Positions 4,095-10,019 of a DNA stretch of 53,761 nucleotides are shown in pieces. The first letter of the stretch is position 1; the number at the start of each line of letters is the position of its first letter. Source of the stretch: Clostridia bacterium (lineage in GTDB: Bacteria; Bacillota; Clostridia; Oscillospirales; QAMX01); the NCBI GenBank assembly GCA_017532825.1, contig JAFXIT010000007.1, positions 1 through 53,761 of the forward strand, in the 5' to 3' direction. The translations under genes were made by a program, and so were the position numbers. The notes beneath the pieces were generated by a model. That model had not been told where the DNA came from, searched no databases, and was given only the letters and a program-made list of their open reading frames with translations.

Positions 4095-4280
4095 ATGGAC
4101 ATACGCCCCGGAGATATATTGGAGATGAAGAAAAAGCACCCCTGCGGCTCCGACCGCTGGAGGGTCACCCGTGTGGGTATGGACTTCAAGCTCGTCTGCA
4201 TGGGCTGCGGACGGGAGATAATGGTCCCACGTTCCTCTGCCGAAAAAAGCATGAAAAAGCTTATAAGGGAAGAATGTTAA
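4095..4280 (+). CDS. DUF951 family protein
   Basis: 61-residue protein matching the small Firmicutes family DUF951: MDIRPGDILEMKKKHPCGS at the N-terminus and LVCMGCGREIMVPR in the middle. Three cysteines (HPCGS, CMGC) suggest metal binding. AAAGGAG lies 8 bases before the chosen ATG; an in-frame ATG at 4071 has no better site. It is divergent from the uracil-DNA glycosylase gene. Function is unknown in the family. Confidence 0.88.
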   Translation: MDIRPGDILEMKKKHPCGSDRWRVTRVGMDFKLVCMGCGREIMVPRSSAEKSMKKLIREEC

Positions 4281-4348: not shown

Positions 4349-5044
4349 ATGAGTCAAAAGAAGATCCTCATAGCCGAGGACGACCTCAACATACAGGACA
4401 TCCTCCGTCTCTATATGGAAAAGGAGGATTATCGGGTGTTTACCGCCTCCAACGGCAGTGAAGCTCTGCATAAATACCGTGAGGTGAAGCCCGACATCAT
4501 ACTGCTGGACATTATGATGCCCATCCTTGACGGACTTGAGGTCTGCAAGGAGATACGAAAGGAAAGCAACGTCCCCATAATCATGCTTACGGCCAGAGGG
4601 GAGACCGTCGACAGGGTGACGGGTCTTGAGCTGGGCGCAGACGACTATATCCCCAAGCCCTTTGAGATGAGAGAGGTGCTTGCAAGGGTGCGTGCGGTCA
4701 TGCGCAGGTACGAGCAAAAGCCCGCCGCCGAGGACTCAAAGCGTATATCCTACGACGGACTTGAGGTTGATATCGACGCCTACCGTGTCACCATCAGGGG
4801 GGTACCGGTGGATATGCCGCCGAAGGAGATAGAGATGCTTTACTTCTTTGGAAAGAACCCCAACCGAGTCTTTACCCGCAACCAGCTGCTTGACCAGGTC
4901 TGGGGCGTAGAATACTTCGGTGATACACGTACCATAGACGTGCATATAAAGCGTATGCGCGACCGCCTTGAGGGTGTCAGCGACAGGTGGTCGCTCAAGA
5001 CCGTCTGGGGCGTGGGATACAAGTTTGAGGTAGCGGACAGATAA
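4349..5044 (+). CDS. OmpR/PhoB-type response regulator
   Basis: 231 residues: an N-terminal receiver domain with the acidic pair EDD at 10-12, phospho-acceptor D54 (LLDIMMP) and the conserved lysine in YIPKPFE, then a C-terminal winged-helix DNA-binding domain ending in TVWGVGYKFE. It forms an operon with the histidine kinase 9 bases downstream and the HtrA-like gene. A -10 element TATAAT is at 4314-4319, but its -35 is poor, which may mean activator dependence or autoregulation (inference). Confidence 0.95.
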   Translation: MSQKKILIAEDDLNIQDILRLYMEKEDYRVFTASNGSEALHKYREVKPDIILLDIMMPILDGLEVCKEIRKESNVPIIMLTARGETVDRVTGLELGADDYIPKPFEMREVLARVRAVMRRYEQKPAAEDSKRISYDGLEVDIDAYRVTIRGVPVDMPPKEIEMLYFFGKNPNRVFTRNQLLDQVWGVEYFGDTRTIDVHIKRMRDRLEGVSDRWSLKTVWGVGYKFEVADR

Positions 5045-5053
5045 AAGGAGCGG

Positions 5054-6499
5054 ATGACATTGCGTAATATCGCAATGCAAAACTTCATAGTAACGGCGCT
5101 GACGATATTTATCTGCCTTATTCTTCTCTGCTCGCTGACGCTCGTTAGGATATACACCTACTCGGTAAACGAGCTTATCGATGACCTTAAGGGCGAATGC
5201 CGTACCGTTGCGCCCAGTGCGCTGATATGGATGAGAACTCCCTATAAGATGGACGACAGCGCTATCCTGAGCGCCCTTGACAGCCGTGCCTCGGAGCATA
5301 AGCAGCGGATAATGATAGCCGACAGCCGAGGCAACGTGATCTGTTATGCCGACGGAAACGAAAAGGGGACACAAAACGGCGGGACCCTTTCCCAAAGTCT
5401 CGTAGCCCGCATATCCGAGGGGGAGACGGTGCAGGAACTCGGAACACTCGGAGGATATTACGTCAACAAGCTGCTTAACGTCGCCTGCCCGATAACAGAT
5501 TCGGCGGGAAACGTGAGGGGAAGCGTGATAATTTCGACACCCATAAGCCGTGTTACCGAGCCCTTCCGTGCAATAATCGGAAGCATTCTCGGGGGACTTA
5601 TCTTCGTCCTGCTCGGCTCTTTTGCAATGATATATTACGTTTCCAAACGGCTTGCACGCCCCTTGAGCTCGATGTCGAGGGCGGCAAAGCGGTTTGCAAT
5701 GGGCGACTTTTCAGAGCGTGTAGAGGTCAGCGGTCCGTCGGAAATATCCGACCTTGCGGTGTCGTTTAACTATATGGCCGAGTCCATGGAGCAGCTTGAG
5801 TCTCTTCGAAGCGAGTTTATCGCAAACGTCTCCCACGAGCTAAAGACCCCCATGACGACTATTTCGGGGCTTGTAGACGGTATGCTCGACGGCACCATCC
5901 CCCCCGAAAGGACAGAGCATTATCTCGGTATCGTTTCGGGTGAGGTACAGCGGCTTTCAAGGCTTGTTACCAAGCTTCTTTTTGCGACTAAGCTGCAGTC
6001 GGGTGACCAAAGACTCAATATGACCAATATCGACATCTGCGAGATGGTGACCTCGACCCTGTTCTCAATGGAAAAGACCATCGAAGGAAAGAGTATGGAG
6101 GTCGGGATCGACTTTGAAAGCGATCGGATAAACGTCCTTGCCGACTGTGACGGGGTCTCTCAGGTGTTAAATAACCTCATAGATAACGCCGTCAAGTACG
6201 GAAACGAGGGCGGAAGGCTGACCGTTTCGGTATACAAAAAGGGCGAGCAGGCCTTTATATCGGTATTTAACACCGGAGTGGGTATAGAGGTCTCCGAGAT
6301 ACCCTATATCTTTGACAGATTTTACAAGGTGGACCGTTCCCGAGGTCTTGACAAAAACTCGACGGGGCTTGGACTGTATATAACCAAGTCCATCCTTTCG
6401 AGAATGGGTCAGGAGATCTCGGTCGAGAGCGAGTACGGAAGGTACGTGCGTTTCACCTTTACCCTGCCGCTTGCGAAAAATCCAATGCTTAAGGAGTAA
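5054..6499 (+). CDS. Sensor histidine kinase
   Basis: 481-residue membrane kinase partnering the response regulator. Order: transmembrane helix (about 11-33), extracellular sensor of about 135 residues, second helix (about 172-196), HAMP linker (about 197-250), HisKA with phospho-acceptor H261 (NVSHELKTP), then HATPase_c with the N box NNLIDNAVKYG, FDRFYKVDRSR and the G box STGLGLYITKS. All key catalytic elements are present. The extracytoplasmic part looks like a PAS-type fold (DSRGNVICYAD, then PITDSAGNVRGSVIIS), but the signal cannot be read from sequence. The gene is followed 5 bases later by the HtrA-like gene, which may be part of the same envelope response. Confidence 0.95.
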   Translation: MTLRNIAMQNFIVTALTIFICLILLCSLTLVRIYTYSVNELIDDLKGECRTVAPSALIWMRTPYKMDDSAILSALDSRASEHKQRIMIADSRGNVICYADGNEKGTQNGGTLSQSLVARISEGETVQELGTLGGYYVNKLLNVACPITDSAGNVRGSVIISTPISRVTEPFRAIIGSILGGLIFVLLGSFAMIYYVSKRLARPLSSMSRAAKRFAMGDFSERVEVSGPSEISDLAVSFNYMAESMEQLESLRSEFIANVSHELKTPMTTISGLVDGMLDGTIPPERTEHYLGIVSGEVQRLSRLVTKLLFATKLQSGDQRLNMTNIDICEMVTSTLFSMEKTIEGKSMEVGIDFESDRINVLADCDGVSQVLNNLIDNAVKYGNEGGRLTVSVYKKGEQAFISVFNTGVGIEVSEIPYIFDRFYKVDRSRGLDKNSTGLGLYITKSILSRMGQEISVESEYGRYVRFTFTLPLAKNPMLKE

Positions 6500-6504
6500 T
6501 AGCC

Positions 6505-7722
6505 GTGTCCCGATCGGAAGAAAAAAGTAAAAAAAACGGCCGCCTGAGCATGCTTTTCGTAATGGCGACCGTCTCGGCAGGCCTGCTTCTTGCGGTAATA
6601 ATTGCGGTAGGCGCCGTGCTGATAAGCGGAATTGCGATAGTGACCGATGACAGCGGCAAAACCACCGTCGTTTTCGGCGGAGGAGGAAAAAGCGATCCCT
6701 TTAAGCGTCCTGCGTCCACTCTGCCCCCGGAGATGGAGACATCGACGGGTCTTGTCATAGAGGATCCGCCTTCACCGAGCGTGAGCATCAATCCTACCGA
6801 AAACCCGGGCGAGCTGACCGTCTCGGAGATAGCCAAGACGGTAGGTCCTTCGGTAGTGGGTATCACCGTGATCAAAAACGGCCAAGGTCTGGTTGCATCG
6901 GGCGTTATACTCAGCACCAACGGATACATCGTCACGACTGCCGACAGTGTCATCGGCGCAAGCAAGATAAGCGTCATGCTTGACAACGGAGAAACCTACC
7001 CTGCGGAGCTGGTCGGCGCAGACAGACTTTCGGATATTGCGGTGATATGCATCGACGCAGACGGACTGGATGCGGCGACGTTTGGAAACTCCGATGCGGC
7101 GGAGGTGGGAGACCTTGCCGTTGCCATCGGTACTCCATACAGTCTTGGACTTATGGGAACGACCACTTCGGGTATAATCTCGGCTATAAACCGTGACATC
7201 ATAATCGAGGGACGGGTCATGAGCCTGCTGCGGACCGACGCCTACATTGCAAACGGTTGCGCCGGAGGGGCGATAGTAAACCGCTTCGGGCAGGTCATAG
7301 GCATAATTTCCGAGTCGCTAAACGGCGTGTTTGACGGTATCGGCTTTGCCGTGCCGATGAACACAGCCAAGCCTATCATAGAGGACATTATTGAGGGTAG
7401 GCTCGAGCGAAGTCTGTCCCTTGGACTGACGGGCCGCTTTATCGACCAAAAGCTTGCAGATAACCTCTCGGTTCCGCAGGGACTGTACGTCTACGCCGTG
7501 TGGACGGGGAGCGACGCCTTTGAAAAGGGCATACGTACGGGCGACGTTGTCGTTGCCATGGACGGGGTGGAGATAACCGACCTTGCGGTGTATGACTATC
7601 TTCGGTCACAGCACAAGGCAGGGGAGAGCGCTCTGATAAGGGTGTATCGGGACGAAGCCCCCTACGATAGCTCACCGGGAGAGTATTTTGAGCTTGAGGT
7701 AAGGCTTGGATATATCAACTGA
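6505..7722 (+). CDS. Membrane-anchored HtrA/DegP-like protein with a degenerate catalytic triad (pseudoprotease)
   Basis: 405-residue S1C-family protein: short cytoplasmic tail, one transmembrane helix (about 16-44), a linker rich in Pro/Ser/Thr, a trypsin-like domain (about 108-290) and a C-terminal PDZ domain (about 305-400). Aligned to HtrA motifs, GYVVTNNHVV becomes GYIVTTADSV (catalytic His is D147), the Asp is kept (SDIAV, D177), and GNSGGP becomes GCAGGA (catalytic Ser is A253). Two of three catalytic residues are therefore missing while the fold-forming residues, the oxyanion-loop glycines and the PDZ domain are kept. It probably binds peptides rather than cleaving them. The start is GTG at 6505 with AAGGAG 8 bases upstream. 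It sits at the end of a two-component operon and ends at a strong terminator. Confidence 0.9.
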   Translation: MSRSEEKSKKNGRLSMLFVMATVSAGLLLAVIIAVGAVLISGIAIVTDDSGKTTVVFGGGGKSDPFKRPASTLPPEMETSTGLVIEDPPSPSVSINPTENPGELTVSEIAKTVGPSVVGITVIKNGQGLVASGVILSTNGYIVTTADSVIGASKISVMLDNGETYPAELVGADRLSDIAVICIDADGLDAATFGNSDAAEVGDLAVAIGTPYSLGLMGTTTSGIISAINRDIIIEGRVMSLLRTDAYIANGCAGGAIVNRFGQVIGIISESLNGVFDGIGFAVPMNTAKPIIEDIIEGRLERSLSLGLTGRFIDQKLADNLSVPQGLYVYAVWTGSDAFEKGIRTGDVVVAMDGVEITDLAVYDYLRSQHKAGESALIRVYRDEAPYDSSPGEYFELEVRLGYIN

Positions 7723-7757: not shown

Positions 7758-8870
7758 TTAGTTTATTTTAAAGACCTTTGGGTCGGGCCACCAGCGCTTG
7801 TTATCACCGATGACACCGCCGATGTTCTCCGAGAGGACGACCTCTCTTGTGTTGCCGAGGTCGACGATGTTTTGCTGCTTTGAGCCGCAGTCCATGATGT
7901 TGCTTCGGATAATGATGCTCTGGACGTTTTTGTAGACGATACCGAATTCGGGGCTTATAACACCGCCGGGAGCATCGTCCTCACCGCAGCCGAAGGTATT
8001 TCCCGTGATGACCCAGTTTACGCAGTGGTCAAGGTATATGTGGCTGCTGTGATGGATGTCTTCAAAGCCATCACCGTGGGGCTTGCCGGAGCGACGGAAT
8101 ACGTTGCCTGTGACGGTGACGTTGAAGAGCATGGCGTTTTTACCGATGACCGCCTTGATGGCGGGGCCTCCGCTGCGGTCAAAGCAGTTGCCGGTGATGT
8201 TGATGGAGTCTCCGTTGGCCTCCGAGGCGAAGATAAATCCGCCGCCCCTGTTCCATTCGACACGGTTGCCGGTCATGGTCACGGAGGCAAGGCATTGACC
8301 GCTTCTGAATCCGCCGTTGCCGTTGCCGGAAAGCTGATTGTCAAGGACGAAGGCATCCCAGCCGTCCATATAAAGTCCTGCGCCTCGGTTTCCCATAAGC
8401 AGACAGTGACGGACTATATAGCACCACACCCGTGACAGATGCACACCGTCGCCGGTGAAGCTGCTTATACGGCAGTTGTCGATAGTGGGGGAGTCCTCCT
8501 TGCCGCCGCCGTTGTGGCGTTCCCATTCGAGCTTTACGCCGTGGACGTTGTTTCCAAGTCCTCTGCCGTTGAGGCAGATGTCCTTGATGGTGCATCCGAA
8601 GCCTCCCGTAATATCTACAAGGCAGTCGGCCTCGGGATCGTTGAGTAGGATGACCGAGCCGCGGTCGGCACTGTATACCCACGCCGCCATTCCCTGCAGG
8701 GTGACCCCTTCACCGAGGTGAAAGCTTCCCGAGCAGTATACTCCGGGAGGGACCATAATAACACCCTGGACCTCTGCGGCGGCGGCCGCCGCGGCACGTA
8801 TGGCTTCGGTGGAATCTGTTACACCGTCGCCGATTGCGCCGAATTCCGTAATGTCAAATACGTTTTTCAT
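7758..8870 (-). CDS. Right-handed parallel beta-helix protein (pectate lyase/GH28-like), copy 1
   Basis: 370 residues. The N-terminal FDITEFGAIGDGVTDST segment is typical of the pectate lyase-like/GH28-related beta-helix superfamily, followed by many repeats ending in NCRI, TGN and GN turns that form helix coils. There is no signal peptide, so it probably acts on imported sugars or is exported another way. It is a tandem duplicate of the next gene upstream (about three-quarters identical by eye) and the last gene of an operon with the second copy, the rlmL-like gene and trmL. The catalytic residues cannot be assigned, so lyase versus hydrolase versus non-catalytic is open. Confidence 0.8.
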   Translation of the reverse strand: MKNVFDITEFGAIGDGVTDSTEAIRAAAAAAAEVQGVIMVPPGVYCSGSFHLGEGVTLQGMAAWVYSADRGSVILLNDPEADCLVDITGGFGCTIKDICLNGRGLGNNVHGVKLEWERHNGGGKEDSPTIDNCRISSFTGDGVHLSRVWCYIVRHCLLMGNRGAGLYMDGWDAFVLDNQLSGNGNGGFRSGQCLASVTMTGNRVEWNRGGGFIFASEANGDSINITGNCFDRSGGPAIKAVIGKNAMLFNVTVTGNVFRRSGKPHGDGFEDIHHSSHIYLDHCVNWVITGNTFGCGEDDAPGGVISPEFGIVYKNVQSIIIRSNIMDCGSKQQNIVDLGNTREVVLSENIGGVIGDNKRWWPDPKVFKIN

Positions 8871-8906: not shown

Positions 8907-10019
8907 TTAGGATATGTGCCAGAACTCGGATGAGGGCCACCAGCGCTTGTTTTCTCCAAGCGTGTTGCCGATATTCTCCGAGATAACGATGTCCTTGGTG
9001 TTGCCAAGGTCGATCGTATTTTGCTGTTTTGCACCGCTGTTCATAATGTTTTTGCTGATCATTATACTTTCACAGTTTCCGTATGCTATACCGAATTCCG
9101 GACGGATCATATTCGCCTCGGGGTCGTGATCTCCGCAGCAGAAGGTATTGCCGGTAATGACCCAGTTGATGCAGTGCTCAAGGTAGATATGACTACTGTA
9201 GTACGGATTTTCAAAGCCGTTGCCGTTGTGTTTGCCGGAACGGCGGAAGGTGTTGCCGGTGACGGTCACGTTAAAGAGCATAGCGGTATCACCGATGACA
9301 GCCTTGATGGCGGGGCCGCCACAGTCGTCAAAGAAGTTGCCGTTGATGTTTACCGAGTCACCGTTGCACTTGGAGGCAAATATAACTCCGCCGATACCGT
9401 TCCATTCGATGCGGTTGCCGGTCATGGTCACGGCCGCAAGGCACTGGCCGCACCTGATGCCGCCGCCTGCATTGGCGGCAAACCAGTTGTCGAGGATGAA
9501 GGCGTCCCAACCGTCCATATAGAGTCCCGCACCGGAGTTGGCGAATATCATGCAGTGGCGTACGGAGTAACACCAGACTCTTGAAAAGTGCAGGCCGTTG
9601 CCGGTAAAGTTGCCTATGCGGCAGTTGTCAACCGTCGGGGTGTCTTCTTCGCCGCCACCGTTGTGGCGTTCCCATTCGAGCTTTACGCCGTGGATGTTTT
9701 TTCCCAGACTTCTGCCATTGAGACAGATGTCCTTGATGGCACAGCCAAATCCGCCGGTGATGTCGACCAGACAGTCGGCTTCGGGGTCGTTAAGGACTAT
9801 GACCGAGCCACGGTCCGAACGGTAGGACCATGCCGCCATACCCTGCAGGGTAACGCCCTCACCAAGATGAAAGCTTCCCGAGCAGTATACACCGGGGGGT
9901 ACCATTATCACTCCGTGAACCTCTGCGGCGGCGGCCGCCGCGGCACGTATGGCTTCGGTAGAATCGGTCACACCGTCGCCTACCGCTCCGAATTCCGTAA
10001 TGTCAAATACGTTTTTCAT
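8907..10019 (-). CDS. Right-handed parallel beta-helix protein (pectate lyase/GH28-like), copy 2
   Basis: 370 residues, the same length as the downstream copy and alike throughout, with the same start (MKNVFDITEFGA) and end (ENKRWWP). Differences cluster in the predicted loops (for example WVYSADRGSV against WSYRSDRGSV, and the 'GNG' and 'HYC' turns), suggesting diverged binding surfaces. It overlaps the upstream rlmL-like gene by 4 bases (ATGA). The gap to copy 1 is only 36 bases. Both copies belong to the superfamily of glycan-acting parallel beta-helices, but the substrate is not visible. Confidence 0.8.
   Translation of the reverse strand: MKNVFDITEFGAVGDGVTDSTEAIRAAAAAAAEVHGVIMVPPGVYCSGSFHLGEGVTLQGMAAWSYRSDRGSVIVLNDPEADCLVDITGGFGCAIKDICLNGRSLGKNIHGVKLEWERHNGGGEEDTPTVDNCRIGNFTGNGLHFSRVWCYSVRHCMIFANSGAGLYMDGWDAFILDNWFAANAGGGIRCGQCLAAVTMTGNRIEWNGIGGVIFASKCNGDSVNINGNFFDDCGGPAIKAVIGDTAMLFNVTVTGNTFRRSGKHNGNGFENPYYSSHIYLEHCINWVITGNTFCCGDHDPEANMIRPEFGIAYGNCESIMISKNIMNSGAKQQNTIDLGNTKDIVISENIGNTLGENKRWWPSSEFWHIS

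What the first reader, a model, noticed from the sequence alone, without database searches (positions are those of the whole stretch)
6505..7722. HtrA-like pseudoprotease in a two-component operon
Seen: His replaced by D147 and Ser replaced by A253, while Asp177, the fold, the membrane anchor and PDZ domain are kept; the gene is directly after a histidine kinase. Known: HtrA proteins use a His-Asp-Ser triad. Inference: it may bind misfolded proteins as a sensor or regulator for the kinase.
Basis: partly seen in the sequence, partly recalled or inferred. Interest (0 to 1): 0.6.

Follow-up and report, generated by a model that had tools for sequence, protein, structure and literature searches.

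The report
Dead HtrA protease beside sensor kinase
In a small group of uncultured Clostridia (the two named ones are classed as Clostridiales/Oscillospiraceae), the membrane protein made next to a sensor kinase looks like the quality-control protease HtrA but has kept its shape while losing its cutting residues, so it most likely binds misfolded proteins or tunes the kinase rather than cutting anything.

Summary
The ORF at 6505-7722 is a single-TM, trypsin-like + PDZ HtrA homologue with His147→Asp and Ser253→Ala; Asp177 is kept. It lies 5 nt after a WalK/PhoR-like histidine kinase in a response regulator–kinase–HtrA operon. It is neither a sequencing error nor a single-strain mutation: the orthologous operon in two species of another genus carries Glu147/Ala253, and the three sequences form one well-supported clade (100/99). 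It is also not general. The twelve other family operons and all 81 nearest homologues examined elsewhere in the order keep His-Asp-Ser, so the active protease is ancestral and the triad was lost once. Conserved positions lost in all three dead copies cluster at the active site (6/11 versus 4/61, p=0.0005). The fold, PDZ core and sensor arginine (R230) are kept. The frame stays open and constrained at the protein level, although the protease domain evolves faster. Best reading: a non-proteolytic, membrane-anchored HtrA that binds unfolded envelope proteins and so buffers or tunes the linked kinase. Engineered HtrA(S260A) of B. subtilis is a direct precedent. HtrA pseudoproteases are known (MamO), so this is a new variant of a known kind. 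Contact with the kinase is inferred, not shown.

The parts
4095..4280 (+). DUF951 small protein, upstream neighbour
   Evidence: Pfam PF06107, 2e-28; by eye the same CxxCGRE-type sequence precedes the regulator in the g4, g7 and g10 loci
4349..5044 (+). OmpR/PhoB-type response regulator of the operon
   Evidence: Response_reg + Trans_reg_C; orthologue precedes the kinase in 14 other family loci
5054..6499 (+). Sensor histidine kinase, WalK/PhoR-like, two TM helices, extracellular alpha/beta domain, HAMP-HisKA-HATPase
   Evidence: Pfam; best NCBIfam score WalK, below its cut-off; best PDB fold hit a WalK-YycH model; SHELKTP motif and ATPase motifs intact
6505..7722 (+). HtrA-like pseudoprotease, 405 aa
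6541..6627 (+). Predicted single TM anchor (residues 13-41)
   Evidence: helix in model m997275c5eb36; hydrophobic stretch in sequence
6820..7398 (+). Trypsin-like domain (about residues 106-298)
   Evidence: Trypsin_2/Trypsin matches, HtrA fold
6943..6945 (+). Catalytic His position, Asp147 (GAC); Glu in the two g10 species
   Evidence: alignment
7033..7035 (+). Catalytic Asp position, Asp177 retained
   Evidence: alignment
7192..7194 (+). Arg230, aligned with the loop-3 sensor arginine of DegP/DegS, retained
   Evidence: invariant in 41-sequence alignment A3; equivalence to DegP R187 is from own knowledge
7261..7263 (+). Catalytic Ser position, Ala253 (GCC); Ala in all three pseudoproteases
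   Evidence: alignment
7417..7704 (+). PDZ domain (about residues 305-400), binding-loop Gly307 kept
   Evidence: PDZ_2; G307 invariant in A3

Best explanation
An HtrA that was an active quality-control protease in a response regulator-kinase-HtrA envelope-stress operon lost its catalytic centre once, in the common ancestor of this genus and a sister genus, and was kept as a non-proteolytic protein. It is predicted to sit in the membrane by one helix, face outside, and bind unfolded or exposed segments of secreted proteins through its PDZ domain and the former substrate cleft. It would hold them without cutting, and by doing so lower or tune the signal reaching the neighbouring kinase. Shown here: loss of both catalytic residues, retention of the fold, PDZ and sensor arginine, operon linkage, single origin, an intact constrained frame. 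Inferred: outward topology, client binding, co-regulation by the neighbouring regulator, effect on the kinase.
For: Triad state DDA here, EDA in two other species, HDS in all other family operons and in 81/81 nearest homologues elsewhere in the order. Single clade, 100/99, nested among active orthologues. Losses concentrated at the active site, with R230, the PDZ glycines and D177 kept. Frames intact, with codon positions 1 and 2 (0.56-0.71 identity) far more conserved than position 3 (0.33-0.44) among the three. Kinase directly upstream in 14 other family loci and 59/81 order loci. Precedents: B. subtilis HtrA S260A gives less htrA-promoter (CssRS) stress signal than wild-type HtrA and better fitness (PMC10715036); inactive HtrA has chaperone-like activity (same paper; DegP S210A complementation and a C. 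jejuni case cited in PMC6387919).
Against: No expression, binding or phenotype data. The protease domain evolves faster than in active sisters (mean distance to outgroups 1.87-2.35 versus 1.21-1.45) while the kinase core does not, which partly fits loss of constraint. Only three species carry the dead form. In B. anthracis the S255A form fails to rescue stress resistance (PMC6387919), so dead HtrA is not always useful. The kinase has its own extracellular domain and may need no partner.
Confidence: 0.5

Rival explanations
1. Kinase co-sensor: the dead HtrA physically contacts the kinase through the membrane or extracellular parts and switches it when a client binds, playing the part that the membrane-anchored YycH/YycI proteins play for WalK.
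For: Operon with a WalK-like kinase; single TM anchor; in S. aureus YycH/YycI are accessory membrane proteins of WalK (PMC7355866); retained allosteric arginine R230 and PDZ.
Against: No contact evidence. Active HtrA sits in the same operon slot in most relatives, so the linkage predates loss of activity and does not by itself argue for a sensor role. No pseudoprotease-specific jump in the kinase sensor branch was evident.
Confidence: 0.25
2. Partner of an active HtrA paralogue: the dead subunit joins or activates an active HtrA, as MamO activates MamE.
For: This genome has two other trypsin-like proteins with intact triads (C49, C31), and G018 has an active one. In magnetotactic bacteria active/dead pairs arose repeatedly (PMC4794232).
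Against: G019 (92% complete) encodes no other Trypsin_2 protein. The paralogues are distant (34-36% identity) and not co-operonic.
Confidence: 0.12
3. Relaxed remnant: the operon no longer needs HtrA proteolysis in this lineage and the gene is slowly decaying.
For: Faster protease-domain evolution in the three species; further loop degeneration in G019 (TAEFAGA).
Against: Intact frames in three species of two genera, strong codon-position constraint, kept PDZ and sensor arginine, kept start-stop coupling to the kinase in the g10 species, acidic residue kept at position 147 in all three.
Confidence: 0.12
4. Assembly or sequencing artefact in a metagenome bin.
For: The window and the two named relatives are metagenome-assembled.
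Against: Independent assemblies (SVLY01, JAEERN01) show the same class of changes at several neighbouring codons, all in open frames.
Confidence: 0.01

Closest known systems
HtrA/DegP/DegQ/DegS family (MEROPS S1C; NCBIfam TIGR02037, Pfam Trypsin_2 + PDZ_2)
   Same: Trypsin-like fold, one PDZ, N-terminal membrane anchor, loop-3 arginine, catalytic Asp
   Different: His and Ser of the triad replaced, N145, N249, N252 of the active-site loops also lost; all NCBIfam scores below their cut-offs
MamO pseudoprotease of magnetotactic bacteria (and inactive MamE copies)
   Same: An HtrA-family member that lost the triad and was kept; a nonglycine residue at chymotrypsin position 193 also occurs in the G019 orthologue
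   Different: Not a magnetosome protein; different residues lost (MamO has a Thr at the Ser position, a Trp and a Glu in loop L1); independent origin; in a two-component operon
CssRS-HtrA/HtrB secretion-stress system of Bacillus
   Same: Two-component system genetically linked to a membrane-anchored HtrA; the S260A engineered HtrA resembles the natural form here
   Different: There HtrA is an active protease; here the operon copy is dead by nature; kinase scores best to WalK, not shown to be CssS
WalRK (YycFG) operon with YycH/YycI and a downstream htrA in Bacilli
   Same: WalK-like kinase, OmpR-type regulator, HtrA gene in the neighbourhood
   Different: No YycH/YycI genes between kinase and htrA here; kinase below the WalK cut-off and no cytoplasmic PAS domain reported by Pfam

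Membership tests
HtrA/Deg serine protease family (by descent) | Trypsin-like domain followed by PDZ domain | tested here: met
   Trypsin_2 and PDZ_2 above curated cut-offs; HtrA fold
HtrA/Deg serine protease family (by descent) | Phylogenetic placement among HtrA orthologues | tested here: met
   Nested among active orthologues, 100/100 clade; same operon
HtrA/Deg serine protease (as enzyme) | His-Asp-Ser catalytic triad | tested here: not met
   Asp-Asp-Ala
HtrA/Deg serine protease (as enzyme) | Proteolytic activity | not testable with these tools
   needs purified protein
HtrA/Deg serine protease (as enzyme) | Curated equivalog/subfamily cut-offs (TIGR02037, NF047968 and others) | tested here: not met
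   201.1 of 416.2 and 200.6 of 470 bits; an active sister (L032) also falls short, 276 of 416
MamO-type pseudoprotease | Membership of the MamO family | tested here: not met
   NCBIfam MamO 73 of 800 bits
MamO-type pseudoprotease | Transition-metal binding by a surface di-histidine | not tested
   No coordinates in hand and no metal assay; an acidic residue at 147 beside D177 is noted only
CssRS/HtrA secretion-stress system | HtrA linked to a two-component system | tested here: met
CssRS/HtrA secretion-stress system | Regulator controls htrA in response to misfolded exported protein | not testable with these tools
   needs transcription data
WalK sensor kinase | NCBIfam WalK cut-off | tested here: not met
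   255.7 of 725 bits, though it is the best-scoring family

The most novel reading that the evidence does not exclude
A natural 'dead protease' sensor: the catalytically inactive HtrA is the unfolded-protein-binding subunit of the kinase complex, so the kinase reads client occupancy of HtrA instead of HtrA cutting clients. The conserved acidic residue that replaced the catalytic His could additionally form a new ligand or metal site with Asp177.
Probability: 0.22. Interest if true: 0.65.

Novelty: new variant of a known kind. Interest (0 to 1): 0.45.

Why it matters
HtrA is a dual protease and chaperone, and how far the non-cutting function suffices, and whether HtrA feeds back on the kinase it is encoded with, is unsettled in Gram-positive bacteria. 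Here evolution has made the S-to-A type mutant that laboratories make by hand and kept it in the kinase operon across two genera, beside closely related species with the active form. That gives a natural paired comparison for separating the proteolytic from the non-proteolytic role.

Tried and rejected
Artefact or strain-only mutation: rejected, same class of change in two independently assembled species. General loss in the order: rejected, 81 of 81 nearest homologues elsewhere keep the triad. Replacement nucleophile Cys252: rejected, Phe in both relatives. Several independent losses: not needed, one clade. Obligate partner of an active paralogue: weakened by G019, which has no other Trypsin_2 protein. 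The genome-contig scan with the three dead sequences found only the two known relatives; the other full-length hits keep the His and Ser, and the rest are split HtrA genes. A search for a regulator-binding site upstream of the operon was not carried beyond reading the sequences. Synonymous distances are saturated between these species, so no formal dN/dS was computed; codon-position identity was used instead. No paper on a natural pseudo-HtrA beside a kinase was found in the open-access library, which is not proof that none exists.

Full report
What is there. The ORF 6505-7722 (+) encodes 405 aa starting with GTG. Pfam finds Trypsin_2 at 131-267 and PDZ_2 at 317-385, and phmmer against the PDB finds DegQ/DegP first. 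An AlphaFold2 model from a 41-sequence alignment has mean pLDDT 85.9, with a helix at residues 13-41 (the anchor), a trypsin-like domain and a PDZ domain. Foldseek places it with DegP/DegQ. The catalytic positions read Asp147, Asp177, Ala253. The motifs TNxHV and NPGNSGG have become TTADS and ANGCAGG.

Neighbourhood. A DUF951 gene (4095-4280), an OmpR/PhoB-type regulator (4349-5044) and a histidine kinase (5054-6499) precede it on the same strand; the kinase stop and the HtrA start are 5 nt apart. The kinase is complete (SHELKTP and ATPase motifs). It scores best to WalK but below that family's cut-off, and its best PDB fold match is a WalK-YycH model. Its own extracellular part is predicted as a helix plus a five-strand alpha/beta domain, so it could sense something without HtrA.

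Is the loss real and how old is it? The family to which this genome belongs was searched with the protein (21 genomes). The regulator-kinase-HtrA operon is present in 14 other family loci. Twelve of these keep His-Asp-Ser. Elsewhere in the order, 81 of the nearest homologues were fetched and all 81 keep the triad; in 59 of them a kinase of this type lies directly upstream, a lower bound because some loci end early. In a maximum-likelihood tree the three dead sequences form one clade (100/99) inside a clade with active g4 and g7 orthologues (100/100). The simplest history is an ancient operon with an active protease and one loss of catalysis.

Is the dead form maintained? Reading frames are open in all three species and, in the two g10 species, the HtrA start overlaps the kinase stop. 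Among the three, identity at codon positions 1 and 2 is 0.56-0.71 against 0.33-0.44 at position 3, so the protein sequence has been under constraint. Among positions conserved in at least 85% of active relatives, those lost in all three dead proteins are G131, N145, H147, V148, N249, N252, S253, K271, E277 and I283. Of the active-site motif positions 6 of 11 are lost, against 4 of 61 others (Fisher p = 0.0005). R230, D177 and the PDZ glycines are kept. The replacement of His is always acidic (D, E, E) and that of Ser always Ala. In G019 the oxyanion glycine is also gone (Glu), as in MamO. On the other side, the protease domain has evolved faster than in active sisters while the kinase core has not, as expected once catalysis no longer constrains it, but also compatible with slow decay.

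How it most likely works. Inference, from established HtrA biology: HtrA proteins bind unfolded proteins and C-terminal segments by the PDZ domain and cleft, and the non-cutting activity alone can help. In B. subtilis an engineered S260A HtrA lowered the CssRS-dependent htrA promoter response relative to wild-type HtrA under AmyQ stress and improved fitness (PMC10715036). In B. anthracis the equivalent S255A form did not rescue stress resistance (PMC6387919), so the outcome depends on the system. I commit to a non-proteolytic holdase or client-binding protein that buffers or tunes the linked kinase (0.5). Direct contact with the kinase, as YycH/YycI do with WalK, is the chief rival (0.25). Partnership with an active paralogue, the MamO-MamE way, is less likely because G019 has no other Trypsin_2 protein, though that genome is only 92% complete. 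Decay is possible (0.12).

Known or new. HtrA pseudoproteases are known from magnetotactic bacteria (MamO and inactive MamE copies; PMC4794232), and linkage of htrA to two-component systems is known in Bacilli and others (review PMC12826053). I found no report of a natural dead HtrA fixed as the third gene of a two-component operon (open-access library only). It is a member of the HtrA family by descent, not a member of the HtrA enzymes by its active site. I file it as a new variant of a known kind.

Limits. The three dead forms come from draft metagenome bins; only three species carry them; topology, client binding, regulation and kinase contact are untested; the equivalence of R230 to DegP R187 is from general knowledge.

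Noticed in passing
L081 203-1379, L082 5385-6579, L083 5382-6558; also L097-L099, L103, L105, L108, L119, L123: Candidate programmed +1 frameshift in an htrA of a genus of small-genome uncultured Clostridia: 8 of 32 species-level genes carry the same single extra base (intact CCN ATT GGN TTT GAA, split CCN ATT CGG NTT TGA), so that the first frame ends at NTT TGA, much like the prfB site, and the Ser/PDZ half follows in +1. Both halves stay conserved (75-94% aa identity) and the state changes at least 5 times on a quick tree that is weakly supported in places.
   Followed up: partly
L095 (genome G018, contig C32:3474-3962, minus strand): A second degenerate trypsin-like membrane protein in one pseudoprotease-bearing genome: the His motif reads TNASVC and the Ser motif ASARGG; it has a C-terminal TM segment and no PDZ was seen.
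   Followed up: no
window 7758-8870 and 8907-10019 (minus strand): Two adjacent, closely similar 370-aa proteins that look like parallel beta-helix (pectate-lyase-like) proteins, probably a tandem duplication; a related gene also lies directly downstream of the htrA operon in G011 (L037 4996-6426).
   Followed up: no
window 4095-4280: A DUF951 small protein precedes the operon; by eye the same kind of sequence lies upstream of the regulator in the g4, g7 and g10 loci too.
   Followed up: partly
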